From Fimbriimonas sp. (lineage in GTDB: Bacteria > Armatimonadota > Fimbriimonadia > Fimbriimonadales > Fimbriimonadaceae): a stretch of 39,247 nucleotides of DNA. Positions 511 through 31,721 of the stretch are shown here, one piece after another. Position numbers and translations under genes: made by a program. Position 1 is the first letter of the stretch; each line of letters begins with the position of its first letter. The stretch lies in the NCBI GenBank assembly GCA_031292555.1, contig JARLGV010000010.1:1-39247 (forward strand), in the 5' to 3' direction. Below the pieces are notes generated by a model. It saw only the letters and a program-made list of their open reading frames with translations, made no database searches and was not told the origin of the DNA.

Positions 511-1109
511 ACGGACTCCTGAGCTGGGACGTATCCGCGCTCTTCAGCGATCTCCCATAGGGAAACCTGAAGCAGCCTTCTTGCCCGATGAAGGCGCGAG
601 CGTATCGTGCCGACCGGAACTTCCAGTGTTTCCGCGCACTCCGCGTAAGACATCTCGGTCACAAAGTGAAGGGTCGCTGTCTCTCGATATTCCGCCGGCA
701 GTCGCACCAACGCATCGGAAACCATCTGGGCGTCGGCTTTGCCCAGAATGACCTCTACCGGATCGCTCTTCATGGGGAGCCCAATTCTCTTGGCTTGGAG
801 ATAGAGATACGACTCGGGAGCATCAGCCAGAGCAACGGTAGAGCGCCGTTCTTCGCTTTGTCTAGTTCGGTAAAAGCGATGCATGAGAATCCTCAAGAAC
901 CACGCCTTAAAGTTTGTGCCTGGCACAAATTGATGGAAGGAACGAAACGCCAAAAGGCTTGCATCCTGAACGAGGTCCATCCCCGCTTCTCGGTCACCTG
1001 CAAGCCGTACGGCGAAGCGGAAGGCCAGCGGAAGAACTGGCCGAAGTTGGTCCTCAAAGTCGCTTCGATCGACCACCGCCCAAGGAACGTTTGGCCCGTC
1101 AGCCATCAT
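507..1109 (-). CDS. ECF-family RNA polymerase sigma factor
   Basis: A 200-residue sigma-70 family protein. Region 2 spans about residues 20-88, with the DLVQDASLLAFR helix and the FKAWFLRILMHRFYR stretch that melts and reads the -10 element. Region 4 spans about 128-182, with LPAEYRETATLHFVTEMSY followed by the helix-turn-helix VPVGTIRSRLHRARRLL that reads the -35 element. There is no region 1 or 3, which defines the ECF class. It is the middle gene of a three-gene minus-strand operon with ATGA overlaps to the redoxin upstream and the anti-sigma downstream. ECF factors usually transcribe their own operon; I could not pick out a convincing matching promoter upstream of the redoxin. Confidence 0.93.
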   Translation of the reverse strand: MMADGPNVPWAVVDRSDFEDQLRPVLPLAFRFAVRLAGDREAGMDLVQDASLLAFRSFHQFVPGTNFKAWFLRILMHRFYRTRQSEERRSTVALADAPESYLYLQAKRIGLPMKSDPVEVILGKADAQMVSDALVRLPAEYRETATLHFVTEMSYAECAETLEVPVGTIRSRLHRARRLLQVSLWEIAEERGYVPAQESV

Positions 1110-1672
1110 TTTTCAGCAAGAACTTTATCAAGCACTTCGCCGATTTTCTTCTCTCCGCCTGCGCCTTGCCAATTCAGTTCGCCAAACCAGTGATAGCGGA
1201 CAATCCCATTTCTATCGATTACATAAAGTGAGGGCCACATATTCACATGCCACTTCTTCCAGTTGGAGCCGTCGTTATCGATAAGGACGGGATAGTCGAT
1301 TTGGTCTTCGGTAACGTGCTTTGCCACCTCATCCACTTTGCGCTCAATCGCCATTTCGGGCGTATGCACCGAAATCAACTCCACTCCCTTTTCCCGGTAC
1401 TTGCTTAAGAGCCTTGAGTAGGCGGGAAAATTGTGCTGACAGTTTTCGCAAGCGAAGGTCCAAAACGCGACCAGCGTTGGCTTCCCCCGCCGAGATTCAA
1501 GGGTGACTGGCTTGCCGTCCTTCGTGTTTATCCACGGCCCTCCGACGAGTTCAGGGGCCCGATTCGGATCTTTCTTATTCTGGCCCGAGCGGAAACCGGC
1601 AAAACCGAACGTCAGGGCCAGGATGAGAGGTGACGCAAAAGCCAGCATCGAGAACTTCAGGATTTGTTTCAT
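1106..1672 (-). CDS. Membrane-anchored or secreted thioredoxin-like protein (redoxin/TlpA family)
   Basis: A 188-residue protein. The chosen ATG gives an N-terminal hydrophobic segment (residues 6-27) acting as a signal anchor or signal peptide, then a thioredoxin fold with the active-site motif WTFACENC (Cys75 and Cys78), a VELISVHTPE strand and a cis-Pro region MWPSLYVIDRNG. WTFxCxNC is the form found in DipZ/TlpA-type extracytoplasmic reductases. The open frame continues upstream by 100 codons, but that part has no family features and precedes the signal segment. The stop overlaps the sigma-factor start (ATGA), making it the first gene of the redoxin-sigma-anti-sigma operon. Its substrate is not known. 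Confidence 0.88.
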   Translation of the reverse strand: MKQILKFSMLAFASPLILALTFGFAGFRSGQNKKDPNRAPELVGGPWINTKDGKPVTLESRRGKPTLVAFWTFACENCQHNFPAYSRLLSKYREKGVELISVHTPEMAIERKVDEVAKHVTEDQIDYPVLIDNDGSNWKKWHVNMWPSLYVIDRNGIVRYHWFGELNWQGAGGEKKIGEVLDKVLAEK

Positions 1673-2336: not shown

Positions 2337-2529
2337 ATTGCATGGCGGGCATGCCAAAACATACCTACTGCCGCGTTGTCCTCCACTGAACACAAAGCCT
2401 TGGGAGGGACAAGTCTCGCTCGCCGGTGTCTATGGAAACGCGGACATGGAGGGGACGTCAGACGATTTTGGGACTGGTCTAGGAGTCAACCTGTTGGAAT
2501 ACTGTGGTGTTGGCGGCCCACGGCGATCC

Positions 2530-4926: not shown

Positions 4927-5678
4927 GCGCACCAAAACTTGGGGAGCGCGCGAAAGCGCTCTTCGCGAACTACAAAGGTCTGCTAGCTATGGACGAAAGC
5001 AATCCGACCTGCAATAAGCGGTTCGCCGCAACGGGAATTCCTCAGACGGTCGAGGCTCGCCAACTTGGCGAACGACTCAGCCTCATAGAATTCAGTCGGA
5101 TCTACTCCAGTCCACAGCAGCGCGCAAAGCGAACTTGCGAGTTGACGCTTCCAGAAACGGCTTTCGACACTGAGCCAGACCTCGCCGAGTGGAACTACGG
5201 CGACTACGAAGGAAAGCTCACCCAAGATATCTGGAAAGTTCGATCCAACTGGGATTTCTTTCGTGATGGATGCCCCGGCGGCGAATCTCCAAGGCAAGTT
5301 GCGGCTCGTGCCGATCGCCTAATCGGGCGGCTTCGAGTCCTCGGAGGGAACGTCGCACTCGTTACCCATGGTCAGTTTGGCAGCGTGGTGGCTATGAGGT
5401 GGATCGGACTTCCCGTGGCCGACGCCGAGCACTTCCCGCTAGGAACGGGCTCGATCAGCATCCTGGCTTTCGCTGCACATCACCCCGAAGTGGCCGTCGT
5501 GACACGGTGGAATACTCCAGGCGGTCCCTCGTTCGACCTTGGGAATTACCCAAGGATTGATCCTTTGACGGAAGCGAAACCGGTTGGAATTGCGCGATGG
5601 GAAAACGAAGGCGGCGAGATTTCAGCCCAGCCTCAAATTCCGTTGGAAGACACTGTGCGCGTAGGGGCAGTTCTTTGA
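4923..5678 (+). CDS. Chimeric ORF: class I aldolase N-terminus joined to histidine phosphatase C-terminal part
   Basis: A 251-residue frame starting at GTG in a GTGA overlap with xfp. Residues 1-45 are the start of a class I fructose-bisphosphate aldolase, with [17 protein letters not shown] at 18-34, including the Asp equivalent to rabbit Asp33. From about residue 46 the protein is a histidine phosphatase: [12 protein letters not shown] (60-71), EWNYGDYEG (89-97) and the second catalytic His in VTHGQFG (His149). The opening RHG motif carrying the phosphorylated histidine is missing, as are the rest of the aldolase and its Schiff-base lysine. The frame is intact, but neither enzyme should work. 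It looks like a deletion that fused two neighbouring genes at GTCGAGGCTCGC near 5050-5062, or an assembly error. Confidence 0.85.
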
Positions 5679-6450
5679 AAAAACTCATCGTGTTCGACCT
5701 TGACGGCACGCTCGCCGAAAGTAAATCGGCCCTCGATCCAGAGATGGCACTGTTCTTAGGTGGACTGCTCGACATCGTGAGGGTCGCTGTTATATCCGGT
5801 GGAGGTTGGCCACAGTTTGAAAGCCAGCTTCTTTCCAAACTGACTGTAGACGGAAGACTGGAAGACCTCTCTCTTCTTCCGACTTGTGGAACGAAGTTCT
5901 ATCACTACGAGTCCGGCTGGAAGCTCCTATATGCTGAAAACTTCACGGAAGCCGAGCGGATCAAGATCCTTACGTCTCTTAAGCAAGTCGTCGAGAAGTC
6001 CGATTTCAAAATCGAGAGAACCTGGGGCGAACAGATTGAAGATCGGGGCAGTCAGATCACGTTTTCAGCGCTAGGTCAGGCGGCGCCAATCGACGCAAAG
6101 AAAGACTGGGACCCGGATTTTGCTAAACGGCAGAAAATGAGGGAACGTTTGGGTCAGGTGATCCCCGAGTTTTCGGTTCGCCTAGGGGGAACGACGTCGG
6201 TGGACGTGACCCGGCCTGGCATTGACAAAGCGTATGGAATCCGAAAGCTGCGCGATACCCTCAGCATTCCCATTCACGAGATGGTTTTTGTCGGGGACGC
6301 CCTGTTTCCAGGCGGAAACGATTACCCGGCCAAGGAAGCGGGAGTCGTGTGCATCCAGGTGCGTGACCCAAATGAGTGTAAGCGAGTCATCGAAACCATA
6401 CTTGCATGCTTAACCGGCGAGAACCATCACAAGCCAATCGGACCTGCTTC

Positions 6451-6454
<4 letters not shown>
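5675..6454 (+). CDS. HAD-IIB protein of the eukaryotic-type phosphomannomutase family
   Basis: A 259-residue cytosolic HAD protein. Motif I is FDLDGTLAES (Asp8 nucleophile, Asp10). The cap carries IEDRGSQITFSALGQ (121-135), GGTTSVDVTRPGIDKAYG (171-188) follows, and the metal site is GDALFPGGND (207-216). These blocks line up with human PMM-type phosphomannomutase (DPEM, NGTVQY, RNGMLNVSPIGR, GGMISFDVFPEGWDK, PGGND), so mannose-1-P/mannose-6-P interconversion is the best guess; a sugar-phosphate phosphatase is the alternative. The start is a TTG forming a TTGA overlap with the chimeric gene; the upstream in-frame ATG adds 26 residues unlike the family. Beside a GH130 gene, mannose-1-P is a likely substrate. 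Confidence 0.8.
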
Positions 6455-9439
<2,985 letters not shown>

Positions 9440-9447
<8 letters not shown>

Positions 9448-9778
9448 GCAACCAAGCCCGAAGAACCCAAGCGAGCGCGAGGTCCTCGTCGGTCAAATCG
9501 ACGCTGAGGCATCGCGAAAAGCCAAGGCTCGCCGCAAGTCCGACCAGGCTGTCTGGTTTGGCTTGGGAATGATGGGGCTTGTCGGTTGGTCGGTTAGTGT
9601 TCCCACGTTGCTTGGCGCCGGGCTCGGCATCTGGCTCGATAGCAACCATCCAGGTGGTCACTCGTGGACGCTTGCCCTTTTGGTTGCGGGCTTGACTTTG
9701 GGTTGCTTTAACGCCTGGCATTGGGTTTCCAAGCAAGATCGTGCGATGCATGAAGATCCGGGAGGAGACGATGAATGA
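9440..9778 (+). CDS. atpQ: N-type ATPase accessory membrane protein AtpQ (AtpI-like)
   Basis: A 112-residue protein with a charged N-terminus (residues 1-38), then two hydrophobic hairpin segments (about 40-65 and 75-98). It has the P-T-L-L-G-A-G-L-G-I-W-L-D pattern typical of AtpI/ATPase gene-1 proteins, which help build the c-ring and may act in Mg2+ handling. Small membrane subunits Q and R between atpC and atpB are diagnostic for N-ATPases. It overlaps atpC by 8 nt and the start of atpR by 8 nt. Confidence 0.88.
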
Positions 9779-10085
9779 AGTCCTCGCTTTGGGCCTGATC
9801 TTGCTCTTTGGCGGCGTTTTAGGCGCATTCTTCTTCGGCGGTCTGTGGTGGACCGTTGGGAAGGCTGTTAACGCAAAGGCGCCCGCAGTATGGTTTCTCG
9901 GCAGCCTGATTCTCCGGATGGGTTTGACGGTCTCGGGGTTTTATGCCGCGTCGAGTGGAGGCTTGGAACAGCTCTTGACATGCCTGCTTGGTTTTCTGCT
10001 GGCGAGACAAGCCGTGATGTGGTTCACCCGACCGCCGCAGGAAACGAAGGGCTACGAGGCACAGGAGACCAGTCATGCGCCTTAG
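9771..10085 (+). CDS. atpR: N-type ATPase accessory membrane protein AtpR
   Basis: A 104-residue protein with three predicted membrane helices (about 3-28, 40-60 and 66-86) and a conserved arginine in the second (ILRM). AtpR occurs only in N-type ATPase operons. It was proposed to sit against the c-ring, where its arginines may meet the ring carboxylates; its exact job is unsettled. A good ribosome binding site (GGGAGGAG) lies just upstream, within atpQ. The 3' end overlaps atpB by 11 nt. Confidence 0.88.
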   Translation: MNEVLALGLILLFGGVLGAFFFGGLWWTVGKAVNAKAPAVWFLGSLILRMGLTVSGFYAASSGGLEQLLTCLLGFLLARQAVMWFTRPPQETKGYEAQETSHAP

Positions 10086-10794
10086 CGCCGATGGGCTGAT
10101 CTTTTGGCAGCACGGGATCCTCAAACTGAACGGGACGATCGTCTTCAGCTGGGCAATTATGCTCGTGCTGGTTCTGGGATCCCTTCTGGTGACGAGAAGG
10201 CTGTCAACGAGTTTGCAGCCGGCTCGATGGCAAAGTCTTTTGGAGATCGTCGTGACGACGATTGAGAGACAGATCGAAGACGTCGGACTCCGCAATCCGA
10301 GGAAATACCTTCCGTTCCTGGGCACACTTTTCCTGTTCGTCGCGACCGCAAGCCTGTTCACCGTCATCCCCGGCTACGAGCCTCCGACCGGTTCTCTCTC
10401 GACTACGGCAGCACTGGCCCTGTGTGTGTTCGTAGCCGTTCCGCTCTTCGGGATCGAGGATCGGGGCTTTGGCGGTTACGTGAAGTCCTACCTGGAGCCG
10501 ACGGTAATCATGCTGCCCTTCAACATCATCAGCGAGCTTTCCCGTACCCTCGCCCTGGCGGTTCGCCTTTTCGGCAACATGATGAGTGGGGCAATGATCA
10601 TCAGCATTTTGCTGACGATTACTCCCTTTATCTTCCCTGTCGTCATGACCCTTCTCGGCCTACTGACGGGCATGGTCCAGGCCTACATCTTTACGATTCT
10701 CGCCGCTGTCTATATCGCCGCCGCAACCAGCTCGCGCAAGGCAAAGAAGCCTCCAAATGGCGCCGCCACACCGAGTCCAGTTCCTGCAACTTGA
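10075..10794 (+). CDS. atpB: N-type ATPase a subunit
   Basis: The 239-residue stator subunit of the membrane motor, with five or six membrane helices. The essential arginine facing the c-ring is Arg164 in RLFGNMMSG. The last long helix carries the Q-A-Y-I-F pattern (202-206), which helps form the ion half-channels. The start lies inside atpR with AGGAG upstream. The tail is short, Lys/Pro-rich and cytoplasmic. It is followed by a 31-nt gap, the largest in the ATPase block, before the c-subunit gene, whose own ribosome binding site probably allows the extra translation needed for a multi-copy ring. Confidence 0.95.
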   Translation: MRLSADGLIFWQHGILKLNGTIVFSWAIMLVLVLGSLLVTRRLSTSLQPARWQSLLEIVVTTIERQIEDVGLRNPRKYLPFLGTLFLFVATASLFTVIPGYEPPTGSLSTTAALALCVFVAVPLFGIEDRGFGGYVKSYLEPTVIMLPFNIISELSRTLALAVRLFGNMMSGAMIISILLTITPFIFPVVMTLLGLLTGMVQAYIFTILAAVYIAAATSSRKAKKPPNGAATPSPVPAT

Positions 10795-10825
10795 CGCACT
10801 TCAACCAGTAAAAAAGGAAATCTTC

Positions 10826-11107
10826 ATGGATAGCACCACCGTCATCGCCGTCGCCTCAATTACTACGGCCGGACTCACGATCAGCATTGGCTGCATCGCC
10901 CCGGCGCTGGGCGAGGGCAAAGCAGTTTCGACTGCACTGAGTTCTCTAGCCCAGCAGCCTGATGCTGCACCGACGATTACTCGCACCCTGTTCGTCGGTC
11001 TGGCAATGATCGAATCTCTGGCGATTTACTGCTTTGTCGTTTCCATGATCCTCATCTTCGCCAATCCATTCTGGGGCCACTTCTTAAGTCAGACCGCTCA
11101 CAAGTGA
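10826..11107 (+). CDS. atpE: N-type ATPase c subunit (rotor ring)
   Basis: A 93-residue hairpin of two membrane helices that forms the rotor ring. The ion-binding carboxylate is Glu63 in AMIESLAIY, with Ser64 and Tyr68 beside it. Helix 1 carries a second carboxylate, Glu30 in ALGEGKA, where the Na+ ATPase of Ilyobacter tartaricus has Gln32. The loop has QQP in place of the usual RQP. The start at 10826 has a clear AAAAAGGAAA ribosome binding site; the longer upstream frame overlaps atpB and adds unrelated residues. Four bases separate it from atpF. Confidence 0.95.
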   Translation: MDSTTVIAVASITTAGLTISIGCIAPALGEGKAVSTALSSLAQQPDAAPTITRTLFVGLAMIESLAIYCFVVSMILIFANPFWGHFLSQTAHK

Positions 11108-11111
11108 TCTC

Positions 11112-11966
11112 ATGCTCATTGATTGGTTCACCGTTTGTGCCCAGGTCATCAACTTCCTCATCCTCGTGTGGTTGATGAAGCGGTCTCTTTACAAGCCCAT
11201 TCTCTCCGCAATCGAGACAAGGGAGAAAAAGATTGCCACTGAGATTGCGGCAGCCGATGCCAAGAAGGTCGACGCACAACGAGAGCACGACGAGTTTCAA
11301 CACAAGAACGAGGAGTTCGATAAGAAGCGAGCCGCTCTCATGACAAAAGCCCACGGCGACGCGAAGGCGGAACGTGAGCGGCTGCTAGGTGAAGCCCGAA
11401 CCGCCGCCGATGAGTTGACCGCGAAGCGTAAAGAATCACTGCGCGCCGAATCAATAAAGATCAATGAGGCGCTGAGCAGCCGTGCGCGTCAAGAGGTTTT
11501 TGCAGTCACAAGGAAGGCGCTAGCAGACCTGGCCACGACGAGTTTGGAAGAGCGAATGGGCGAGGTGTTCACCAGACGTCTGCTCGAACTCGACGCGAAG
11601 GCCAAGGAGGCTATCGGAGAGGCATTGAAAACTGCTGGATCGCCTACGGTAATCAGGAGTGCTTTCGACCTTCCCGATCAAGAGCGCACGGCGATCCAAA
11701 ATGCGGTTAACGAAACGTTCTCGACCTCTGTCGATCTCCGGTTTGAGGCTTCGCCAGCTCTGATAAGCGGAATTGAACTGAGCGTGAACGGGCAAAAGGT
11801 CTCATGGAGCATCGATGACTACTTGACATCCCTGGAGAAAGACGTCGATGAGCTTTTGACCGCTAAGAAATCGCCAGAGCCTGCAAAAATCGCGAAGCCG
11901 ACAAAAACTGCAAAGCTGACAAAAGCCGCTAAGAACGCAAAGACTGCAAAGGCTGCAAGCAAGTGA
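11112..11966 (+). CDS. atpF: N-type ATPase b subunit with delta-like C-terminus and a basic repeat tail
   Basis: The 284-residue peripheral stalk subunit. An N-terminal membrane helix (4-25) leads into a long charged coiled coil (about 30-160). Residues 175-250 then look like the C-terminal part of a delta subunit, including [20 protein letters not shown] and YLTSLEKDV. This fits the absence of a separate atpH in the operon, a known N-ATPase trait. The last 35 residues are an alanine/lysine/threonine tail with repeated AK-x-T/A-K units, similar in style to histone H1-like tails, which I do not know from other b subunits. The GTGA overlap couples it to atpA. Confidence 0.92.
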
Positions 11967-13516
11967 GCTTTAAGACTGAGAGTTTAGAGGCGGTCATCGA
12001 TCGCACGTTTGACGGAATGAGTCAGGCGCGTGAGTCGTTCACGGCTCAGCTTGTGGCTCACGAAGTAGGCACGATCAAGTCCGTCTCAACCGGAATCGCC
12101 ACCGTCACCGGACTGCCCGGCGTCGGATTTGAAGAGCTGATCAAGTTTCCTGGCGGAGTCTACGGCATCGCCTTTAACGTCGACGAAGAAGAGATAGGCG
12201 TCGTCTTGCTCGGAGAGCATTGGCGCCTCCACGTTGGCGACGAGGTTGAGCGGACCGGTCGAGTTATGGATGTTCCGGTAGGCGACAGCCTCCTCGGAAG
12301 AGTTGTTGACCCTCTTGGTCAGCCGCTTGACGGAAAGGGAGCGGTGGCCGAACGCGCACGACTTCCGATCGAACGTCCGGCGCCTCCGATCATGGATCGA
12401 GCGCCAGTCACCATCCCACTCCAGACCGGCATCAAGGTGCTAGACGCTTTGATACCGATTGGACGAGGTCAGCGCGAGTTGATCTTGGGTGATCGCCAAA
12501 CGGGCAAAACGGCGATTGCCATAGACACAATCCTCAATCAGGGCGACAAGAACGTCGTTTGCGTTTATTGCGCGATCGGCCAGCGGGGTTCCGCTGTCGC
12601 CAAGGCAATCGCGGTCCTGCGAGAAGAGGGGGCAATGGACTACACGGTTGTCGTAGTGACTGAAGGCAATGACCCTCCCGGCCTGGCCTATATCGCTCCG
12701 TACGCTGCAACAAGTATTGCGGAGCACTTCATGGAAGCGGGACGCGACGTCCTGATTGTCTACGACGACCTTACTCAGCACGCGCGCGCCTATCGAGAGC
12801 TTTCGCTTCTCCTGCGAAGGCCCCCCGGACGCGAAGCTTTTCCTGGGGACATCTTCTATATCCACTCGCGCCTGTTAGAGAGAGCCACTCGCTTGGGAGA
12901 GGACCAGGGAGGCGGGTCGCTTACAGCGCTGCCCATCATTGAAACCGAAGCCCAAGATATTTCGGCGTATATTCCGACCAATCTGATCTCAATTACGGAC
13001 GGGCAGATCTATTTGTCACCGTCTCTATTCGAGTTGGGAGTGCTTCCTGCGGTCGATGTAGGCAAATCTGTATCTCGTGTTGGGGGTAAGGCTCAGCGCG
13101 CCGCGTTCCGTGCCGTCGCTGGAGACCTAAAGCTCGCATACGCACAGTTCGAGGAGCTTGAGGCCTTTTCGCGATTTGGCGCTCGCCTTGATGACGACAC
13201 TCGGAAGACCATTGAGCATGGCAAGCGAATTCGTGCATGTCTGAAGCAGGCGGAGCATTCACCCGTTTCTGTGCCAGGGCAAATTGCCGTGCTTTTGGCC
13301 CTCACTGCGAAGCTCTTCGAGTCTGTCCCTCTAGAGAAGATGACAGACGCCGTGAACGCAGTAAGTTCAGGGGACTCAGGCTTACCTAAGGAGATACGGG
13401 ACCGATTTGAGGTTGCCACCAAGCTGAGCGATGAGGATCGAGATAAAGTCATCGAAATCGCAAGCAAGTCGCTTGCCGACTTTGGCGTGGCCACGAAACC
13501 TGAGGAGAAGCCATGA
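11963..13516 (+). CDS. atpA: N-type ATPase alpha subunit
   Basis: The 517-residue non-catalytic nucleotide-binding subunit of the F1 head. It has the Walker A motif GDRQTGKT (176-183), the [10 protein letters not shown] region, the Walker B end [12 protein letters not shown], and the arginine-finger region preserved as [12 protein letters not shown]-like [15 protein letters not shown]. The start is GTG at 11963, overlapping the atpF stop; no better start exists, and the N-terminus lacks the longer helix that housekeeping alpha subunits use to bind delta. Its stop overlaps atpG by ATGA. Confidence 0.96.
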
Positions 13517-14406
13517 GCGACTCTGTCGCAAGTTTACGCAAGAAGATCGAGAACGCGGGAGATCTTCAGTCCGTGGTCCGAACGATGAAGGCCTTGGCTG
13601 CATCCAGCATCGGGCAGTACGAAGCTTCGGTGTTAGCCTTGGCGGATTACGCCCGGGCCCTGGAAATGGGCTTGACCGTGTGCTTCAGGGAAATTGGAGC
13701 GACGCCGACTGCATCGGAGCCATTTCGCAAGTCAGATAGCGGTGACCTGACTGCGGTCGTTTTCGGGTCGGATCAAGGTCTCGTCGGCCAATTTAACGAG
13801 GCTATCGCCGACCATGCGATAACAGCGCTCAAGGCTCTCCCGGGCGAGCCTCAGGTCTGGGCGGTCGGAGAGCGCGTCCGATGGTTATTGGCGGACGCCA
13901 AACTAGATGTGAAGGGGCTATTCGCCGTTCCCACCTCCGTACAATCGATTACCCAACTCGTTGGGGAGGTTCAGTTGGCAGTTGAGGCCCGCGGTGCGGC
14001 AACTCCGAATGCGAGTGTCTATGTCTTCCACAATCAACCCAGACCCGGTGCTCTCTACGAACCGATTGGCGAACGATTGCTGCCCCTCGATGACAGGTGG
14101 CGGGCCGAACTTGTCAAGATTGACTGGCCGACTGGAAATCTGCCCGAACTGCTTTGCTCCAGCGCGGCTACTCTAGGCGCGCTCATCAGCGGGCACCTGT
14201 TTATTGCCGTGTTCAAAGCTTGCGCGGAGTCGCTCGCAAGCGAAAATGCAAGCCGCCTTGCCGCGATGCAACGTGCCGAAAAGAACATCGATGAACTGTT
14301 AGAAAGCCTTCAAGGCAAGTTCCATAGCTTGCGCCAAAGCGGTATCGACGAAGAACTCTTCGACGTGGTCTCAGGGTTCGAAGCCCTATCAGGAACCAAA
14401 AACTAG
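13513..14406 (+). CDS. atpG: N-type ATPase gamma subunit
   Basis: The 297-residue central shaft. N- and C-terminal helices ([21 protein letters not shown] at the start; [20 protein letters not shown] near the end) form the coiled coil turning inside the alpha/beta ring. The Rossmann-like body has [12 protein letters not shown], the counterpart of the usual SDRGLCGxxN. It is the last gene of the operon; the right-hand tRNA-like repeat follows 175 bp downstream. Confidence 0.93.
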
Positions 14407-19531: not shown

Positions 19532-20002
19532 AAGAACTCCTAGCAAAACACACAGGATTCTACGACAGGTGCGTGGACGGCAACAAGGTATTGATTACGC
19601 GAGACAACCGCGCAAGTCGTTCTATCCGCCAACGGGTCGACTTGCATAGGCCGATCGATCAAGCTGCCCAAGTACCTGTCCGTCGCCGAGAAGAATTGCG
19701 ACAAATATTCCCTCGTCTGCAAGGGTCGGGCGCACGCCTTGCTCTGGAAGGCGTGCGGAAGCTCATCGGCGAAGCAGCAGGCTCCTTCGAGGCCCGCTCT
19801 GAGGATATGGCCGACTAGTCAACAGACCTCATTTCTAGCTTTCTCGGCACTGAAGCAATGCAACCAAGGCAAGCGTGCATCGGCTGTCGGCAGTCCAAGC
19901 AGGGACCATGTTCTGTGAACGTCACAGACTGCTCGCAGCCGGCCCCCCAAAGAACGGGTCCCTCTTGGCCCTTAGCCATTTCGGGACCCATTTACTCAAG
20001 TC
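19532..20002. other. Gap with acetyltransferase relic
   Basis: Some 470 bases between two minus-strand genes. The relic at 19668-19815 is the only thing recognised. The promoter of the secreted protein gene should lie at the left end on the minus strand, directly before its AGGAG site; no clear -35/-10 was seen. Confidence 0.5.
19668..19815 (+). pseudogene. Relic of a GNAT-type acetyltransferase, paralogue of the gene at 22222
   Basis: Bases 19668-19738 match 22346-22416 at about 77% by eye (GTCCGTCGCCGAGAAGAA is shared), and 19739-19815 match 22594-22674 (CTCTGGAAGGCG, GAGGATATG and others). The roughly 177 bases between the two blocks in the intact gene are missing here, and the join shifts the frame, so KGRAHA is followed out of frame by LALEGVRKLIGEAAGSF. 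No start region survives. It is a deleted duplicate. Confidence 0.75.
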
Positions 20003-22146: not shown

Positions 22147-22221
22147 CCTCGTACATCCACGGACCGTATGTCGTACGGACCTGTTATCCTGGCAACGATC
22201 TCAAAGGAGAGCGAATCGAAC

Positions 22222-22806
22222 ATGAGTGACTTCGTCGTCAAACCCCTCGACTCATCCGCGTGGCCCGCCTATGCGGATCTGATCGAACGGCACAACGGCG
22301 TCTGGGGAGGGTGTTGGTGCATGGGGTTCCAGAAGGATGAAAAGCCCAAATACGGGTCCGTCGCCGAGAAGAAAGAGGACAAGCACTCACTCATTTGCAA
22401 AGGTCGGGCACACGCGGCGGTAGTGTTTGATGGGGACACCGCCGTAGGCTGGTGTCAGTACGGGCGGAGCGACGAAATTGCCCCCCGCAACAAGTTCAAG
22501 AAGACCTATTTACCAGGCCTGGAGGCTGAGCCCGACTGGAGGATTACCTGCTTCTTCGTGGATCGAAAGTACCGCGGCAAGGGAGTCGCCAGCCTGGCTC
22601 TGGAAGGCGCGCTCAAGCTCATCGCCGAAGCGGGCGGAGGCTTTGTCGAGGCGTACCCTGAGGATATGACCGACAGGACTACAAACCAGTCATTCATCTG
22701 TCTAGGCACCACCGCGATGTTTGAGCGAAGAGGCTTCGTTCGTCAGCGGCAAGTGGCAAAGCACCACTGGGTGATGACCAAGGTCGTGCCGATGATCTCC
22801 CTTTAG
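22222..22806 (+). CDS. GNAT-family N-acetyltransferase
   Basis: A 194-residue cytosolic acetyltransferase. The acetyl-CoA loop is RGKGVASLALEGAL, preceded by the strand WRITCFFVDRKY and followed by TTAMFERRGFVRQRQVAKHH, the usual C-terminal GNAT layout. The N-terminal half has HNGVWGGCWCMGF, a W-G-G-C-W-C-M signature I recall from a GNAT subfamily of unknown substrate. ATG 22222 is preceded by AAAGGAGA, which decides the start over the frame opening at 22168. A deleted copy of the gene lies at 19668-19815. Confidence 0.87.
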   Translation: MSDFVVKPLDSSAWPAYADLIERHNGVWGGCWCMGFQKDEKPKYGSVAEKKEDKHSLICKGRAHAAVVFDGDTAVGWCQYGRSDEIAPRNKFKKTYLPGLEAEPDWRITCFFVDRKYRGKGVASLALEGALKLIAEAGGGFVEAYPEDMTDRTTNQSFICLGTTAMFERRGFVRQRQVAKHHWVMTKVVPMISL

Positions 22807-24124
22807 GGCCCTTGACGCCGCCGACCAGATGGCAAGGAACCCCGATACCGTCTTCAGGAGAGCCCTACGGCGGAGCTCCCGTCCAGCATGTCGTCGCGCC
22901 ACCAGCCGCCCTGGTGAAGACGAGTACCGAATGGAATTATCGTAGGTGGCCAGCACTCTTCAGCTGGGTACTCAGAGATTAGGGACACCGCGACCACCTT
23001 TGTGCCCCTTCGACTCGTCCGAAGTGCAGTGCCTGCCCGTCGCTCTCCTAGGGATCTGTCCTGCGAGTCCGTGGTCGAAGGTCAGCGACTGCTCCCACAT
23101 TGCCTGACAGGTGGGACAGTCGTGTTTCGGCGGACGAACCGCCCTATATCTGGGATGCTCCTTGCACTTCACCATCGAGCCTCGCTTGACGTCAGTATGC
23201 ATTCGATGATAATCCTAAGGTGAGAGGCAGAGCGACGTATTGCTTGCGGGGGCAGCAGTGCAGGAGGCACGCAGCATCCTTCGAGGGGGAGTGCCCGAGG
23301 TTGCCTCTTGCAGTCGCGGAGGTAGGAGACGTCATCGTATACGAGCCGATATCCAACGCTCCTGTCGTCGAGGCTCTCGTCAATCTTGAGGCGGCGCGCT
23401 TCCTTAAGCCGTATCTAGCTCTGCTCTCGCTTTTGAGAGCAATTATGGCTATCGGCGTCTTGATCCTTCCGGGGTAAAAGTGTTGTCCCGCGGTGTGTGG
23501 CAGGGAGTGGCGACGATCCTCACTTTCAGTCATTGTCCATCGATAAGGGGCTCCTGGCCCATCAGACCAGCATCGACCAACGTGGCGCCTTTCGCTGCAT
23601 CTAGGAACAGGCACACGGTCTCAACGACGAGCGTCTGCCACAGGTCATTGGGAGAGCCACACCTAGGCGAATGCCTGCGAGAACGTTCCCGATACATCGC
23701 GCAGGTTCTCGCATGGATTTGGTCATATCAGGCCATGATCCGACCGGTTAGAATGGTGTTTCGGGGGGCTCGTGCTGGGCTATTCTGGACCGCGTCAGCC
23801 TTCGTACTGTGGACTTACACTCCAAGATGCAGTGTGGATGGATAACACGTGTTGGATGAGCTGGTTTTTACGTCAGAGCCGAGTCTTCTTTCCAAGCCCG
23901 TCCTGATGATGTAGGGGACTATGGCGGAAGATGCCGTTTCTGCAGACGATGTGTTTAGTGCAAGCAACTCCGTCTACATCACACTTGCACGACAAAGACC
24001 TATCGTTATCGCAGCCTCCGCTATGGCTGGGTGCTCTGTCTACAGGTTGCCGAGTCTGCTTCAGAGCGCACTTGCCTAGGTATTGGTGATTAGTGCATCG
24101 AGTACGATTTGGCATAGGAACCCT
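22807..24124. other. Gene-poor stretch of 1.3 kb
   Basis: Apart from the small zinc-ribbon frame at 22972-23175, I see no protein family on either strand and no RNA gene. Frames near 23220-23477 (plus) and 23520-23700 (minus, ending near 23533) have protein-like short runs but no recognised match. The composition fits old, decaying DNA beside the TIR gene. Confidence 0.5.
22972..23175 (-). CDS. Small zinc-ribbon-like hypothetical protein
   Basis: A 67-residue frame starting MVKCKEHPRYRAVRPP and continuing KHDCPTCQAMWEQS. It has paired Cys/His (C-x2-H and C-x2-C) around a Y-R-A-x-R-x-P-K block that I associate with small conserved proteins of phages and planctomycete-like bacteria. The second half (after residue 35) looks unordered. 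A GAGG lies before the ATG at 23175. It is the only frame in a gene-poor 1.3 kb, so it could be real or a remnant. Confidence 0.45.
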   Translation of the reverse strand: MVKCKEHPRYRAVRPPKHDCPTCQAMWEQSLTFDHGLAGQIPRRATGRHCTSDESKGHKGGRGVPNL

Positions 24125-27100
24125 GTGGCACGTATATTTCTCAGTTATGGTCACGACGACTCGGTAGAGATTGCCCGAATACTGAAGGCCTGGCTTGTGG
24201 AGCGGGGCCATCGAGTGTGGCTCGATGAGGCTGACTTGGCACGCCGGTTGTCTGTGGATTGGGAACGGGAAATCGAAAGCGAAATCCTCGATTCTGACGT
24301 GTTTCTCGCCTTGCTTTCGCCGAGATCGGTCCAACCGGATAGCTTCTGCAGGAATGAACTTGCGCACGCCCATGATGCGCGCAAACGGATTGTTCCTGTT
24401 ATGGTCCGACGATGCGAGCTTCCCCTACGAATCAACACTCTCCAATACTTGGATCTAGATGGCTGGGAGAGGCGAGATGGCCTTCTCCACTATCTGATGG
24501 ATGCTCTAGTAGAGGCCGTCGAATGCGGTGTTCCCGAGGACCCTCACCAATCCGATTTGCGACGACAGTTTCCGGCAATCGACTTCAGCGAGGACTTTGC
24601 ACGGCATCGTTGCTTCGCAGGACGATCCGAGGTGTTTTCGCGAATCGACGCCTGGGCGCATTCGCCTTCGGCCTCACCCGTCCTATTCATCCTAGGCCCG
24701 CCGGCAATTGGCAAGAGCGCGCTTATCGCGAACTGGGTTTCGAAGCGCCTCGGCGTTGGAGCCGTTCACTTTTGCCGCCACGACAGAACAAGTACGCGTA
24801 GGTTGGAGGATTTTGCGCGGTCGGTTGCCGCTCAAATCCTCCAGCTTGGGCTAGACGGCTATGCTGAAAGTCTCCGCAGCATCAAGGTCGATCGCCTCGA
24901 TCCGAACTCGGACGAGTTCTTCGTTCGAACCGTTGCCGCCCCTTTGCGCGACTTGCCAGCAGGGCGATCATGGACCCTCGCCGTCGATGCGCTAGACGAG
25001 GCGGAGCCGGCCCTTGCGAACATGTTGGGCCGTGTCTGGCGAGATCTCCCATCAAACCTTCGTTTGCTAGTTACTTCGCGTCCCGGCTGGCAGATCGAAG
25101 AGAAATTCCCCAAACCCCTGGTGCTCGATGCGGCAAGCGCAGACAATCGGCGGGATCTTGCCGCGCACGTTCAGGCGGAACTGTCGCTCGGACGCCTAGG
25201 CGAGCGCCTTCGCTCGTCAGGGGCCGATCCGAACAAGATCGCCGAAGCGATAGGAGCTCGGGCGGAAGGGACGTTTCTCGTTGCGGTCGAGATCCTCCGC
25301 GCCTTAACCGACGGCGATCTCGCGCTAGATCGGTTGGACGAGTGGCCGCAGGGGCTAGGGGGCCTACACCGTCAGTACCTGGAGAGACAGTTTCCACATC
25401 GAGACTCCTTTGACGTGGCCCGCATGCCCCTGGCCCTTCATCTTTCGGCGCTTGAACCGGTGACCGATGCCGATGTCGCAGAAGTGTGCGGCCAAACGGT
25501 CAGAACGGTGCAGGCTGCAATGGACTGTCTAGGATCTCTAATGCCGGAGAGCGCTGACGGTCGCCGATCTGCATGGCATAAGTCGTATTTCGACTGGATG
25601 AGCGATTTGAGGGCTGGCGATGACTTTGCCGTGGACTTGAATGACAGCCATGTTCGTTGGGCGGCCTGGTGCGAGTCGCACCTGGGCAAGGAATATGCAC
25701 TACGTTTTGCGGTCGCCCACCGACTGATCTCAAACGATGAGATCGGGGCTCGTTCCTTGCTCTGCGACTGGTCCTACCTCAGGCGTCGCGTGCGCTCTGG
25801 GTTGATATGGCAGACGATCGAGGAGACGTTGCAGATCAACGAATTGCCTGACGGTCGCCTCGATCCGGTTAAAGCCGTTGAGAAGGTCATTCGGACAAAA
25901 GCAAGCGAGCTTGCCGACGATCCTGGAAGCTTCGATTCGATTCTGGCGAGCGACTTACCGATTGCCGCTTTGGAAGGTCTCTCTGCCAGCATCCAGTTTG
26001 ATCATGCGGTAGCAGTTCGTGTGAACCGTAGCCGCCCCACGGTTGAGAGGATGCGTCTCATCCATCCACCCTTCGACCATATCGGATGGGTCGATTACTC
26101 GCCATATGGAAAACTAATTGCTACGGCAATACTTTACGCAGTAAATCTTTGGGATTCCGCGACGGGAAGGCATTCTCGCCGGCTGAACGCGGGCGAACAC
26201 ATTCTGGATTGCGATTGGTCGCCAAACGGCGAGAGGATAATTGCGGGAACGATGGGGCACAAGGTGCATGTTTGGGATGTCCAATCTGGGAACACGATTA
26301 TTACCCTACGTGGACATACCGACTGGGTTCATGCAGTGGCTTACTCGCCAGACGGACGGACTATCGCCAGTGGCTCAGGAGATAGCACCGTCCGCCTTTG
26401 GGACGCGCAAACGAGCGAGCCACTTCATTCGTTTGGCACGCGAGGACGGGTGGTCGAAATCAGTTTCTCGCCCGATGGACGAAGGGTTGCCGCACTTTCG
26501 CACATTGCCCTGCAGCTTTGGGATGTTGAGACTGGAGAGTTGTATGGATCCCTAGAGGCGGGGGAGTTTGACGGTGGGGCTCGACTTGGCTACCAGATGA
26601 CCTACCTTGCCGACGGACGCATTCTCTTCGTCGCCGACGTCTTTGGGCACGAGCAGACCATTCGGATTTGGGATACAGAGAATCGGCCTGCGTTCACCAC
26701 CGTACTGGCCGGTTTTGAGAAGATCAATTGCCTGTCGCTGTCCCGCGATCAACGGCGGATCGCCGTTTCGAGCACTGGTGGCGTGGTCGACATCTGGGTG
26801 GTCTCATCGTGGGAGAAGCTCGGGAGCTACGTAGCAGGATGTGACGCAAAGCGTGGCATTTCGTTCGCACCGGACGGACACAGTTTCGCAACCCAATCCT
26901 ATAGCGACGAAGTTCGGGTTTGGGACCTGCAAAGGAAAGGGTCCGAGGTCTCAATGGATCATTTTGGAGGCATCGAAAGCCTCGACATCTCTCCAGACGG
27001 CCGATGGCTTTGCGGTGGAACACAGGCAGATGTAGTCGGGATTTGGGATGCTCAAACAGGAGCCCCCACGAAGTCCATGCAACACTCAACAGGCCACGTT

Positions 27101-27862
27101 TGGAAAGTCCAGTTTTCACCCGACGGACGGCAAGTATCGAGCGGCCACTGGGACGGAACCTATAGGATTTGGGACGTCGAAAGCGGAGCACAGACTATGG
27201 AATTTGCCAGTCCAACCGAGGCCATCTATCAAGCCGCTTTTCACCGAGACGGCAAGATCCTGGCAAGTTGCTCCGAGGAAAGGTTGGTAAGGCTATGGGA
27301 ACTCGAAACCAGGAAGGAAATTGGGGTGCTCGATGGGCATACCGCCGAGGTGGAGAGCCTTTGCTTTTTCCCGGATGGGCGGCGCATCGCGAGTGGGTCG
27401 TTGGACAATACAATTCGGGTCTGGGACCTAGAGACCAAGGAGACGTTGCTTCTTATCGATGGTTTCGATGGCGCAATCGACAAGCTTGCCGTTTCCCCGG
27501 ATGGGAAACAAGCTCTGGCCGGCTGGTGGCACGAGACGTTCTTCCTCTTTGATCCCAACACTGGCGTGATTTTGCGCACGTTTGATGGTCACGAGGCACG
27601 AGTTACCAGTTTGGCCTTTTCGCCCGATGGACGAACGATCGCTAGCGCGGCTTACGATCGTACAATCCGGCTTTGGGATGTGGAGTCAGGCAAGGAAGCG
27701 TACCGAATCCATACCGACGATGCTAACGTTCATGCAGTGTTCGATCCTTCTAGTCCGGCGCGACTATTGGCGGCAGTAGGCCGCCGGATATGGGTTATTC
27801 AGATTCTGCCTCCCGGGCAACTCGACATGGACATCTTCGCTCTACCCTTGCAAGCGGTGTAG
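24125..27862 (+). CDS. TIR-STAND NTPase-WD40 protein, candidate conflict/cell-death sensor
   Basis: A 1245-residue protein. Residues 1-135 form a TIR domain: RIFLSYGHDD at the start, LARRLSVDW, FLALLSPRSV, the catalytic glutamate position in CRNELAHA (Glu78), and LDLDGW. Next comes a STAND/NACHT-like NTPase with Walker A GPPAIGKS (191-198) and Walker B VDALDEAE (287-294), then a helical region to about 640. The rest is 14 WD40 units (SPDGR...VRLWD pattern), enough for two seven-bladed propellers. GTG 24125 gives MARIFLSYG after a near AGGAA; a TTG at 24083 would add 14 odd residues. Proteins of this plan sense a trigger through WD40, oligomerise by the NTPase, and in studied cases degrade NAD+ by TIR. 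An antiphage role is inferred. Confidence 0.92.
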   Translation: MARIFLSYGHDDSVEIARILKAWLVERGHRVWLDEADLARRLSVDWEREIESEILDSDVFLALLSPRSVQPDSFCRNELAHAHDARKRIVPVMVRRCELPLRINTLQYLDLDGWERRDGLLHYLMDALVEAVECGVPEDPHQSDLRRQFPAIDFSEDFARHRCFAGRSEVFSRIDAWAHSPSASPVLFILGPPAIGKSALIANWVSKRLGVGAVHFCRHDRTSTRRLEDFARSVAAQILQLGLDGYAESLRSIKVDRLDPNSDEFFVRTVAAPLRDLPAGRSWTLAVDALDEAEPALANMLGRVWRDLPSNLRLLVTSRPGWQIEEKFPKPLVLDAASADNRRDLAAHVQAELSLGRLGERLRSSGADPNKIAEAIGARAEGTFLVAVEILRALTDGDLALDRLDEWPQGLGGLHRQYLERQFPHRDSFDVARMPLALHLSALEPVTDADVAEVCGQTVRTVQAAMDCLGSLMPESADGRRSAWHKSYFDWMSDLRAGDDFAVDLNDSHVRWAAWCESHLGKEYALRFAVAHRLISNDEIGARSLLCDWSYLRRRVRSGLIWQTIEETLQINELPDGRLDPVKAVEKVIRTKASELADDPGSFDSILASDLPIAALEGLSASIQFDHAVAVRVNRSRPTVERMRLIHPPFDHIGWVDYSPYGKLIATAILYAVNLWDSATGRHSRRLNAGEHILDCDWSPNGERIIAGTMGHKVHVWDVQSGNTIITLRGHTDWVHAVAYSPDGRTIASGSGDSTVRLWDAQTSEPLHSFGTRGRVVEISFSPDGRRVAALSHIALQLWDVETGELYGSLEAGEFDGGARLGYQMTYLADGRILFVADVFGHEQTIRIWDTENRPAFTTVLAGFEKINCLSLSRDQRRIAVSSTGGVVDIWVVSSWEKLGSYVAGCDAKRGISFAPDGHSFATQSYSDEVRVWDLQRKGSEVSMDHFGGIESLDISPDGRWLCGGTQADVVGIWDAQTGAPTKSMQHSTGHVWKVQFSPDGRQVSSGHWDGTYRIWDVESGAQTMEFASPTEAIYQAAFHRDGKILASCSEERLVRLWELETRKEIGVLDGHTAEVESLCFFPDGRRIASGSLDNTIRVWDLETKETLLLIDGFDGAIDKLAVSPDGKQALAGWWHETFFLFDPNTGVILRTFDGHEARVTSLAFSPDGRTIASAAYDRTIRLWDVESGKEAYRIHTDDANVHAVFDPSSPARLLAAVGRRIWVIQILPPGQLDMDIFALPLQAV

Positions 27863-29013: not shown

Positions 29014-31341
29014 TCAAGGGTTCGGGGTTAGGTGGACGTTGTCGAAACGGGCTTGTTCGATGGCCTGGGATTGGAGGATGAGACGGCGGACCGGGTCCTT
29101 GCCCCGTACGATCAGCGTATAGCTTGGGTCTTTGGGGGTCGCCCGTCGCTCGACAATGGATCCCAGACCCTGAGAGTTCCCATTGAGGGGAGTGAGTTGA
29201 ATGTCCCGGCCAGGGGAGATCGGAGGCACGCCGTCGAGGACAACTCGATAGGTCGTCCAAACATCTCCATCGGCGCCAACCTCCTGTTTTAGTCGCGTCA
29301 GATGCGCATGGCCCGCCCCAGGTCCGACAAGTTGGTCTGCGTGGTTTTGCCAGGAGCTTGTCCGAAGCACGACGGTGATCGGCGACACCCTCGTCGTCTG
29401 CAGAACGTTCAACGTGACGATTCCGATCCGCTCGTCAGGCTTGTCTGGAGTTGCCAGAAAGCCGCTCCGATCGCCATCCAGAGCGTAAGCTTCTCCGATA
29501 TTGGGCGCCAGCGTCGGTTGGAACCATGTCTTTCCATGCACCCGAAAGGCGAGGGTGAGCTTTTTGTAACCGGCATTCGCCGGCATGAAGGAGGTCATCT
29601 TGCCGACGGCCTTGGCGGGCGTGCCGTCGGGTAACCAGGCGCGATCGCCTTCCGATAGTCGGATGAGTTCGATCGAGTGCTTCGACTCGACCAGCTTCGG
29701 CGCGTTTAGTGGTCCTTTGGGTGCTAGCCGCAAATCAAAGGATGTAATCCGATAGGCGCGAGTCTCGATGCCAACGCTCCGAACGTGCGCTGGGTTGTCG
29801 ACTGCGATATAGACCGTCTTTGGGACCTCGTTTTCGTCATCGGTGTACTCGTATTCGTTGTCCCGCACCTCGACCCTTCCCTTGTCGGTGAGAACGAACA
29901 CGCGATAGTCGACATCCGCCAGTGCCGCTGGGAATCGAAAGTCGATCTTCGCCCCCGCAAAAGTGCCCTCTGGCCACGTAATCGGTTCGCTCGTGGCAGT
30001 AAAAGGAACCTTACCGGCGAAAGCGTGATAGGGGCCGGTCGCCCGTCCCACGCGAACCTGGGCTCGGGCTGCCTGGAGAGGCGCTTCCAACGTAAGCCCC
30101 AACGCTCCATCGTTCCGCCCTTCAGACGGTTGTCCATTCCCGTGCGGCGAGCCATAGACAACGACCGCCGCCGGTTTCTCCACCCAAATCCGCAGTTTGT
30201 CCGACTCGGTGAAGTGATCGACCGCGAACCGGACAGACATACGCTTCTTGCCCAGAGGAGTGAAACCACTGGCCGCCACCTGTGAGTCGCCCGCGACTTC
30301 GTCCGGCGTGAAGACCCCGAGCCCTTCGGCGTTCCAACGGCTAGAGGGGAACGGGCTTAGCTGGCGGACGTCCGCGAGCCTGACGGAAGATCCCGTCAAC
30401 AACTCCTCTTTCCCTGCAAGTCCCGCCACTGCGATCCCGGACACGAACAGCAAGGTCGCCAAGATGACGGTTGTGTGACGGCTGGGTGTGCGGCGGTCCT
30501 GGGTGGCGGCTAGGATTGCGACCACCCGGTCCTTGACGCCACCCCGGCGAGCCATGGCCAATGCGGGACCGACAGGTGCGGCCGATGCTGCCACGGCGAG
30601 CAACTCTCGGGCGTACTCGCTTGGCGTCAAGCCGTCGGCGAGCACGGCATCGTCGGCCGCCGCTTCGGCGGTGTCCCGCATGATCCGAATCAGCAGCCAG
30701 GCGAAGGGATTGAACCACTGGACGGTGGCGAGTCCTCCGGCGAAGGATTGCCAAAGCCAATCTCTTCGCCGAATATGGGCACGCTCATGCAATATAGCCG
30801 CCTGCAAGCGTCCCGCCGGCCAATCAACCGAACACTCGGGTACCAGAATCGTGCCGCCGTAAGTGGCAGGCACCAAGACGGCCGCTCGCCAAACGTCAGG
30901 ATCGCCGGTGGGAGCGGCCGATCGTCGAATCCGGGCAAGACCGGCCATACCCAGCGTCCATCTTAACAGGATGAGCCCGACTCCGATGCCGTAGACAAGC
31001 GACCACGGAAAAGTGACGGGCGCCGGAGACTTGGAGAGATCCGTAGTCGGATATGCGATCGACCTGGCCGGCCGCTGGGCCGGAAACGGCTTCGTCTTTG
31101 GTGAATCGACAACCGGTGGCATTGCCCTGGCGGAAGGAAATGCCCGGACCAGGTCGGTCGAAGGTAGTTCGATCCGGGGCGCAACCATCGCCATTACCGG
31201 CAAGAGCCAGGCGACGGCGATCGCGATCCGCAATACGAGATTTCGTTGGGCGGCGGAACGGCTGCGCATGAGCGCCAACGACGTGACGCTCAATGCTGCG
31301 ACTGCGATCGTCCGCAAAGACCAGATGAGAATCGCGATCAT
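29014..31341 (-). CDS. M56-family (BlaR1/MecR1-like) membrane metalloprotease with C-terminal beta-rich domain
   Basis: A 775-residue protein. Membrane helices lie near 5-25, 38-55 and 113-128. The zinc protease site is HERAH (185-189) in AAILHERAHIRRRDW, with the third ligand region in DTAEAAADDAV (about 224-233); a fourth helix is near 285-305. The remaining 460 residues should face outside. They have no penicillin-binding SxxK domain; instead they are beta-rich, with no family I can name. BlaR1-like proteins detect an outside signal and cut their BlaI partner inside. The gene overlaps its BlaI partner by ATGA, so the two form an operon. The signal is probably not a beta-lactam, given the missing sensor domain. 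Confidence 0.88.
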   Translation of the reverse strand: MIAILIWSLRTIAVAALSVTSLALMRSRSAAQRNLVLRIAIAVAWLLPVMAMVAPRIELPSTDLVRAFPSARAMPPVVDSPKTKPFPAQRPARSIAYPTTDLSKSPAPVTFPWSLVYGIGVGLILLRWTLGMAGLARIRRSAAPTGDPDVWRAAVLVPATYGGTILVPECSVDWPAGRLQAAILHERAHIRRRDWLWQSFAGGLATVQWFNPFAWLLIRIMRDTAEAAADDAVLADGLTPSEYARELLAVAASAAPVGPALAMARRGGVKDRVVAILAATQDRRTPSRHTTVILATLLFVSGIAVAGLAGKEELLTGSSVRLADVRQLSPFPSSRWNAEGLGVFTPDEVAGDSQVAASGFTPLGKKRMSVRFAVDHFTESDKLRIWVEKPAAVVVYGSPHGNGQPSEGRNDGALGLTLEAPLQAARAQVRVGRATGPYHAFAGKVPFTATSEPITWPEGTFAGAKIDFRFPAALADVDYRVFVLTDKGRVEVRDNEYEYTDDENEVPKTVYIAVDNPAHVRSVGIETRAYRITSFDLRLAPKGPLNAPKLVESKHSIELIRLSEGDRAWLPDGTPAKAVGKMTSFMPANAGYKKLTLAFRVHGKTWFQPTLAPNIGEAYALDGDRSGFLATPDKPDERIGIVTLNVLQTTRVSPITVVLRTSSWQNHADQLVGPGAGHAHLTRLKQEVGADGDVWTTYRVVLDGVPPISPGRDIQLTPLNGNSQGLGSIVERRATPKDPSYTLIVRGKDPVRRLILQSQAIEQARFDNVHLTPNP

Positions 31342-31721
31342 CGCCCCTCCTCCTCCGCCCGCTCCACCATCTTTCGAAGCTCCTCAAGCTCCTTTGGCGT
31401 GAGACGATCTTTCTCAACGTCCAGGAGCGTCGAAAGCACCGCAGTAACGGAACCACCGAAGAAGCTTGAGAGGAGGCGGTTGAGTTCGCCCCGAGCCACC
31501 GTTTCCCGGGGCCGGGTCGGCCGGTAGACGAATCGTCCTCCCTCCTCGACGTGCATCAGGTGCCCCTTGGCCTCCAGGGTTCGCAAATGGCCCCTGATCG
31601 CCGAGTTCGACAAGCCGTGAAGGTCGATTTCGAGTTCCGTGGCGACGATCGAACCGCGGGCGTAGACGAGATCCATGATCTGCGCCTCCCGTTTGCTAAG
31701 GTTCCCTGAGAGCTTCAACAT
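31338..31721 (-). CDS. BlaI/MecI-family transcriptional repressor
   Basis: A 127-residue winged-helix repressor. LSKREAQIMDLVYARGSIVATEL makes up the first helices; LSNSAIRGHLRTLEAKGHL is the recognition helix and wing lead; VEEGGRFVYRPTRPRE is the wing. The C-terminal part (80-127) forms the dimer helices seen in BlaI. It probably represses its own operon by binding the two 16-bp inverted repeats right before its start, and is released when cut by the M56 protease. No Shine-Dalgarno sequence is visible before the ATG. Confidence 0.9.
   Translation of the reverse strand: MLKLSGNLSKREAQIMDLVYARGSIVATELEIDLHGLSNSAIRGHLRTLEAKGHLMHVEEGGRFVYRPTRPRETVARGELNRLLSSFFGGSVTAVLSTLLDVEKDRLTPKELEELRKMVERAEEEGR

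What the first reader, a model, noticed from the sequence alone, without database searches (positions are those of the whole stretch)
24125..27862. TIR-STAND-WD40 protein as a candidate antiphage or self-killing sensor
Seen: TIR domain with a glutamate in the catalytic position, P-loop NTPase with both Walker motifs, and 14 WD40 units. It stands alone beside 1.3 kb of decayed DNA. Known: TIR domains in several defence systems destroy NAD+ after assembly, and STAND ATPases act as ligand-triggered switches. Inference: the WD40 array is the sensor, making a one-gene abortive system.
Basis: partly seen in the sequence, partly recalled or inferred. Interest (0 to 1): 0.7.

Follow-up and report, generated by a model that had tools for sequence, protein, structure and literature searches.

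The report
NLR-like TIR–STAND–WD40 sensor protein
This gene encodes a bacterial counterpart of plant and animal cell-death receptors, with a probable NAD-destroying TIR enzyme, an ATP-driven switch and a 14-unit WD40 sensor in one chain; the layout was known in bacteria, its relatives swap the sensor and often sit beside two conserved partner genes that this copy lacks, and what it senses is untested.

Summary
A 1,245-aa ORF (GTG 24125..27862) reads TIR (1-115), NACHT/NPHP3_N-type STAND NTPase with intact Walker A and B, a winged helix, and 14 WD40 units about 42 aa apart. E78 is the right glutamate: it is invariant in 15 aligned TIRs and falls on catalytic E77 of the SPARTA NADase TIR-APAZ. 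In an AlphaFold model of residues 1-1200 the best PDB match is full-length Apaf-1; for the TIR-NTPase half it is plant RPP1. "One-gene system" needs a caveat. Across 18 relatives from several phyla the TIR-STAND core is kept while the sensor alternates between WD40 and TPR. Seven of the 18 have same-strand neighbours from two families, an AAA+/RyR protein and a SLOG-like membrane protein. This copy lacks them, but its genome carries such a pair on another contig. TIR-NBD-WD40/TPR architectures in bacteria are published, so this is a new, divergent member of a known kind with a testable multi-gene hint.

The parts
24125..27862 (+). TIR-STAND-WD40 gene, 1,245 aa, GTG start (AGGA at 24116-24119); alternative TTG start 24083
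24134..24469 (+). TIR domain (aa 4-115)
   Evidence: TIR_2 E=2.9e-24; own-genome scan gives these coordinates; AF2 pLDDT mostly 68-91
24356..24358 (+). codon of E78, predicted catalytic glutamate
   Evidence: invariant in 15 aligned TIRs; aligned with E77 of SPARTA TIR-APAZ
24695..24721 (+). Walker A (P-loop) GPPAIGKSA, aa 191-199
   Evidence: G196 and K197 invariant in every relative aligned over it
24980..25003 (+). Walker B AVDALDEA (D288, D291, E292)
   Evidence: D291 invariant, D288 and E292 in all but the divergent TIR-NB-ARC row
25073..25081 (+). TSR sensor motif, aa 317-319
   Evidence: conserved in the family
25388..25672 (+). winged-helix-like region of the STAND module (HTH_TANC1-like)
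   Evidence: Pfam HTH_TANC1 E=8e-6, 26.1 bits against a cut-off of 27; AF2 pLDDT mostly 84-97 there
26057..27844 (+). 14 WD40 units (about aa 645-1240), inferred two 7-bladed propellers
   Evidence: unit starts 659..1206; propeller folds in the model and in PDB matches
23304..23423 (-). remnant of an AraC-type regulator in the 1.3-kb upstream gap
   Evidence: 58% over 41 aa to L109:922-1671, with an in-frame stop

Best explanation
A bacterial NLR-like cell-death receptor. At rest the 14 WD40 units hold the STAND NTPase closed, as the propellers of Apaf-1 do. When the WD40 array binds an infection-linked or damage-linked protein, ATP exchange lets the NTPase oligomerise, the clustered TIR domains form active sites around E78, and NAD+ is cleaved until the cell stops growing or dies. 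Shown here: domain order, intact motifs, placement of E78, fold similarity, a conserved core with exchangeable sensors. Inferred: autoinhibition, oligomerisation, NAD+ cleavage, ligand and benefit against phage.
For: Domain hits. E78 placement and invariance. Walker and TSR motifs conserved in relatives. AF2 model with mean pLDDT 76 over residues 1-1200; best PDB match full-length Apaf-1, E=3e-34 over 1,259 columns; for the TIR-NTPase half, plant RPP1 TIR-NLR, E=4e-8 (from a low-confidence model). Sensor swap between WD40 and TPR on the same core (tree). Patchy spread, as for defence genes: none of 19 same-genus genomes has the TIR-NTPase core, and it is rare in the phylum. A related arrangement, the TIR-like DUF4062 domain plus NACHT plus WD40 of human TEP1, is a demonstrated NADase, and bacterial DUF4062 proteins are antiphage (PMC13174449).
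Against: No activity data. No defence genes recognised in the window. BB loop diverges: two-residue insertion and no glycine where most relatives have one. The chain lacks the N-terminal zinc ribbon of many relatives and sits on a long branch (1.55). Relatives often have partner genes that are missing here. Fold TM-scores are low because the match is not rigid over the whole chain.
Confidence: 0.6

Rival explanations
1. The same receptor mechanism, but triggered by non-self cells or internal stress (allorecognition or developmental death, as with fungal HET-E/HET-D) rather than by phage.
For: Fungal NLRs with the NBD-WD40 plan recognise a host-type protein through WD40 repeats (PMC12881547). 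Some relatives have near-identical WD40 units, as those fungal genes do: L169 mean 70%, L171 mean 60% identity.
Against: Window repeats are diverged (mean 24-27%), so no sign of ongoing repeat shuffling here; no aggregation or fusion biology is known for this organism from these data.
Confidence: 0.2
2. The TIR makes a signalling nucleotide (a cADPR isomer or similar) that switches on another protein, as in Thoeris, instead of depleting NAD+ by itself.
For: 7 of 18 relatives have an AAA+/RyR and/or SLOG-like membrane gene beside them; SLOG domains are described as relatives of TIR in nucleotide-centred conflict systems (PMC7159879). One relative carries a C-terminal NUDIX domain (L050).
Against: The window gene has no such neighbour. 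The SLOG assignment rests on motif reading; the best PDB profile hit, YpsA, is not significant (E=0.05).
Confidence: 0.2
3. A non-enzymatic TIR used only for assembly, or a gene on its way to decay.
For: Unusual BB loop; long branch; decayed DNA directly upstream.
Against: D34, E78 and all NTPase motifs kept; 1,245 codons open with coding-type composition.
Confidence: 0.12

Closest known systems
Bacterial TIR-NBD-WD40/TPR proteins (STAND family; reviewed in PMC9153377)
   Same: N-terminal TIR, central STAND NTPase, C-terminal WD40 or TPR
   Different: This core uses an NPHP3_N/NACHT-type NTPase with a TANC1-like winged helix; its nearest relatives found are at most about 36% identical over the core
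Apaf-1
   Same: NTPase, winged helix, then WD40 propellers; best fold match
   Different: CARD replaced by a TIR domain; 14 rather than 15 WD40 units (15 from general knowledge)
Human TEP1 / NWD1 and bacterial Swarozyc (DUF4062, PMC13174449)
   Same: TIR-like NADase in front of NACHT and, in TEP1, WD40; DUF4062-type genes lie near three relatives (L044, L052, L054) and a DUF4062-like WD40 protein is in this genome
   Different: This protein has a canonical TIR_2 domain, not DUF4062, and no other TEP1 or Swarozyc part
Plant TIR-NLRs (RPP1, Roq1)
   Same: TIR plus STAND switch; RPP1 is the best match of the TIR-NTPase half
   Different: LRR sensor and NB-ARC in plants; WD40 and NACHT-type here
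Avs and bacterial NACHT antiphage proteins
   Same: effector, STAND, sensor layout (from general knowledge and PMC10907252)
   Different: No Avs or bNACHT profile of PADLOC was hit; only TIR and repeat models were

Membership tests
STAND NTPase, NACHT-like clade | P-loop with GKS/T and Walker B of the form hhhhD[GAS]hDE | tested here: met
   GPPAIGKSA and LAVDALDEA, conserved in relatives
STAND NTPase, NACHT-like clade | Match to curated NACHT-type profiles | tested here: met
   NPHP3_N E=4.7e-16 and AAA_16 E=6e-9 above cut-off; Pfam NACHT itself below cut-off, 18 against 26.7 bits
STAND NTPase, NACHT-like clade | Ligand-triggered oligomerisation | not testable with these tools
   needs purified protein
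TIR NADase | TIR fold with glutamate at the catalytic position | tested here: met
   TIR_2 E=2.9e-24; E78 aligned with E77 of TIR-APAZ
TIR NADase | BB loop of the usual form | tested here: inconclusive
   two-residue insertion and missing glycine
TIR NADase | NAD+ cleavage | not testable with these tools
   no assay
WD40 two-propeller sensor (Apaf-1-like) | about 14 WD40 units after the NTPase | tested here: met
   14 units; Apaf-1 top fold match
WD40 two-propeller sensor (Apaf-1-like) | two closed 7-bladed propellers | tested here: inconclusive
   blades 690-790 and 950-1200 well modelled, 800-910 poorly; last 45 residues not modelled
Avs / bacterial NACHT antiphage system | match to a known defence profile over effector and NTPase | tested here: not met
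   PADLOC hits only TIR and HEAT/ARM repeat models
Thoeris | TIR ThsB plus separate ThsA effector | tested here: not met
   no ThsA-like neighbour recognised; only weak ThsB TIR similarity
Swarozyc / DUF4062 | DUF4062 NADase domain | tested here: not met
   N-terminus is TIR_2; DUF4062 not among the hits

The most novel reading that the evidence does not exclude
The TIR-STAND core belongs to a modular system with an AAA+/RyR protein and a SLOG-like membrane protein that respond to the TIR's nucleotide product, with WD40 or TPR sensors exchanged on one core; in this genome the gene has moved away from its partners, which sit on contigs C16/C105, and works with them from a distance.
Probability: 0.2. 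Interest if true: 0.6.

Novelty: new member of a known kind. Interest (0 to 1): 0.38.

Why it matters
It adds a divergent member, probably from Armatimonadota, to the bacterial counterparts of Apaf-1 and TIR-NLRs. The family shows one enzyme-switch core with exchangeable WD40 and TPR sensors, and a recurrent AAA+/RyR plus SLOG-like pair beside it, which would allow a direct test of whether such NLR-like proteins act alone or through a product-sensing partner.

Tried and rejected
Mobile-element origin: no relative in the phage or IMG/VR collections, only weak partial plasmid hits. Defence island in the window: none recognised; neighbours are metabolic, ATP synthase, GNAT and BlaR/BlaI-like genes. 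Empty-site test: flanking genes did not lead to a syntenic site in the two same-genus regions compared, so inconclusive. PADLOC PDC-S01 hits among relatives' neighbours: not on the AAA+/RyR or SLOG-like genes tested, not followed further. First AF2 job with four sequences gave pLDDT 54 and was followed by a deeper one. First genome-contig scan with the single protein found nothing. No paper testing a bacterial TIR-STAND-WD40 protein turned up in the library; most subscription papers are not held, and Kibby 2023 could not be read.

Full report
Check of the observation. The ORF 24125..27862 is real: 1,245 codons from a GTG with AGGA five bases upstream, coding-type GC by position, and about 3e-16 expected by chance. 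Pfam gives TIR_2 at 4-115 (E=2.9e-24), NPHP3_N (E=4.7e-16) and AAA_16 for the NTPase, a near-threshold TANC1 winged helix, and WD40. E78 is correctly placed: among 15 aligned TIRs F5, L24, D34 and E78 are the invariant columns, and in a profile search of the PDB the best hits are SPARTA TIR-APAZ, with AbTir, Cat1 and SARM1 further down. Counting along the printed alignment, E78 falls on residue 77 of TIR-APAZ, the residue whose E77A change is the catalytic mutant in PMC10474274. The upstream gap carries an AraC-type remnant with a stop and a 223-bp stretch 70% identical to a same-genus genome.

Relatives. Within 61 close genomes only the window's own genome has the full core, and among 291 genomes of its phylum three others carry long matches. 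A profile scan of GTDB contigs and a sample of 392 genomes of the phylum of L053 (Planctomycetota) gave 18 loci with the core besides the window. By their record titles and lineages they come from Armatimonadota, Planctomycetota, Desulfobacteraceae and another delta-proteobacterial MAG, Verrucomicrobiota, Acidobacteriota and a proteobacterial MAG. The core motifs are kept; in L172 the pattern for the glutamate motif did not match and was not examined further, and L054, L055 and L050 have broken frames. The C-terminal part changes: WD40 in the window, L045, L047, L052, L060, L169, L171 and, cut by the contig end, L172; TPR in L044, L046, L050, L051, L053 and L055 by profile, and TPR-like by reading in L168 and L170. 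On a tree of 12 members the two sensor types are intermixed, with at least three changes, but shuffled labels do as well, so the tree shows only that neither type is a single clade. Two members from the Planctomycetota sample have near-identical WD40 units (mean 60-70%), while the window's are diverged (24-27%).

Neighbours. Blast of relatives' neighbours against each other found two recurrent families: AAA+ proteins with a C-terminal RyR domain in L047 and L053 (a SLOG-like end in L044; a separate RyR gene in L045), and SLOG-like proteins with hydrophobic segments in L045 and L051 (SLOG by motif; best PDB profile hit YpsA, E=0.05). One or both are present in 7 of 18 core loci (L044, L045, L047, L051, L053, L168, L170), on the same strand as the core, and in 0 of 26 control loci holding more distant TIR or NTPase hits (one-sided Fisher 0.0008). 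That figure is biased, because five of the seven loci supplied the queries; the independent part is 2 of 13 core loci (L168, L170) against 0 of 26. The window has neither gene nearby. Its genome has a SLOG-like gene followed by an AAA+ gene running off the end of contig C16, and a RyR-bearing end of such a protein at the start of C105; that the two contigs join there is inference.

Structure. AF2 with 24 sequences models residues 1-1200 at mean pLDDT 76, the NTPase and winged helix mostly at 80-97, the 560-690 linker below 50 and blades 800-910 poorly. Foldseek ranks full-length Apaf-1 first; the TIR-NTPase half, from a weaker model, ranks plant RPP1 first. A second alignment was filled by single propellers. 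TM-scores are low, so this supports domain order and folds, not domain arrangement.

Mechanism and place among known systems. By analogy with Apaf-1 and TIR-NLRs the WD40 array should sense, the STAND domain switch and the TIR cleave NAD+. TEP1 and bacterial DUF4062 proteins show that a TIR-like domain in front of NACHT can be an NADase and that DUF4062 proteins can be antiphage (PMC13174449). TIR-NBD-WD40/TPR in bacteria is described (PMC9153377), so the architecture is not new. What is added is a divergent member, evidence for sensor exchange on one core, and a recurrent partner pair. Whether this protein defends against phage, recognises non-self or responds to stress cannot be told from sequence.

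Noticed in passing
L137:307-5070 (G000:C78): The same genome encodes a 1,588-aa protein that reads as DUF4062 at its N-terminus (by eye) with NPHP3_N and WD40 hits, the layout of human TEP1/NWD1.
   Followed up: partly
L135:4732-8919 (G000:C16 end) and L136:1-1045 (C105 start): SLOG-like gene followed by an AAA+ gene cut by the contig end, and RyR-bearing pieces at the start of another contig, the same partner families that flank relatives of the window gene.
   Followed up: partly
G000 whole genome: 13 TIR_2 matches, 11 over the curated cut-off, including three on contig C134:20322-22231; the same-genus genomes searched have none to five.
   Followed up: no
L169 and L171: TIR-STAND-WD40 relatives with near-identical WD40 units (mean 60-70%), as in fungal HET-D/HET-E, suggesting repeat exchange.
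   Followed up: partly
L050:4934-8044: A relative with TPR and a C-terminal NUDIX domain fused to the TIR-STAND core, which could act on ADP-ribose products; its N-terminus is broken by a stop.
   Followed up: no
window 19634-19893: Fragments similar to the GNAT gene at 22168-22806 with an in-frame TAG, likely a decayed duplicate.
   Followed up: no
window 2338-14406: Phosphoketolase followed by an ATP synthase cluster with ATP-synt_ab subunits at 7587 and 11963 and a gamma subunit at 13513.
   Followed up: no
window 29014-31721: BlaR1-type M56 peptidase and BlaI-type repressor pair; several same-genus genomes hold multiple copies of the peptidase.
   Followed up: no
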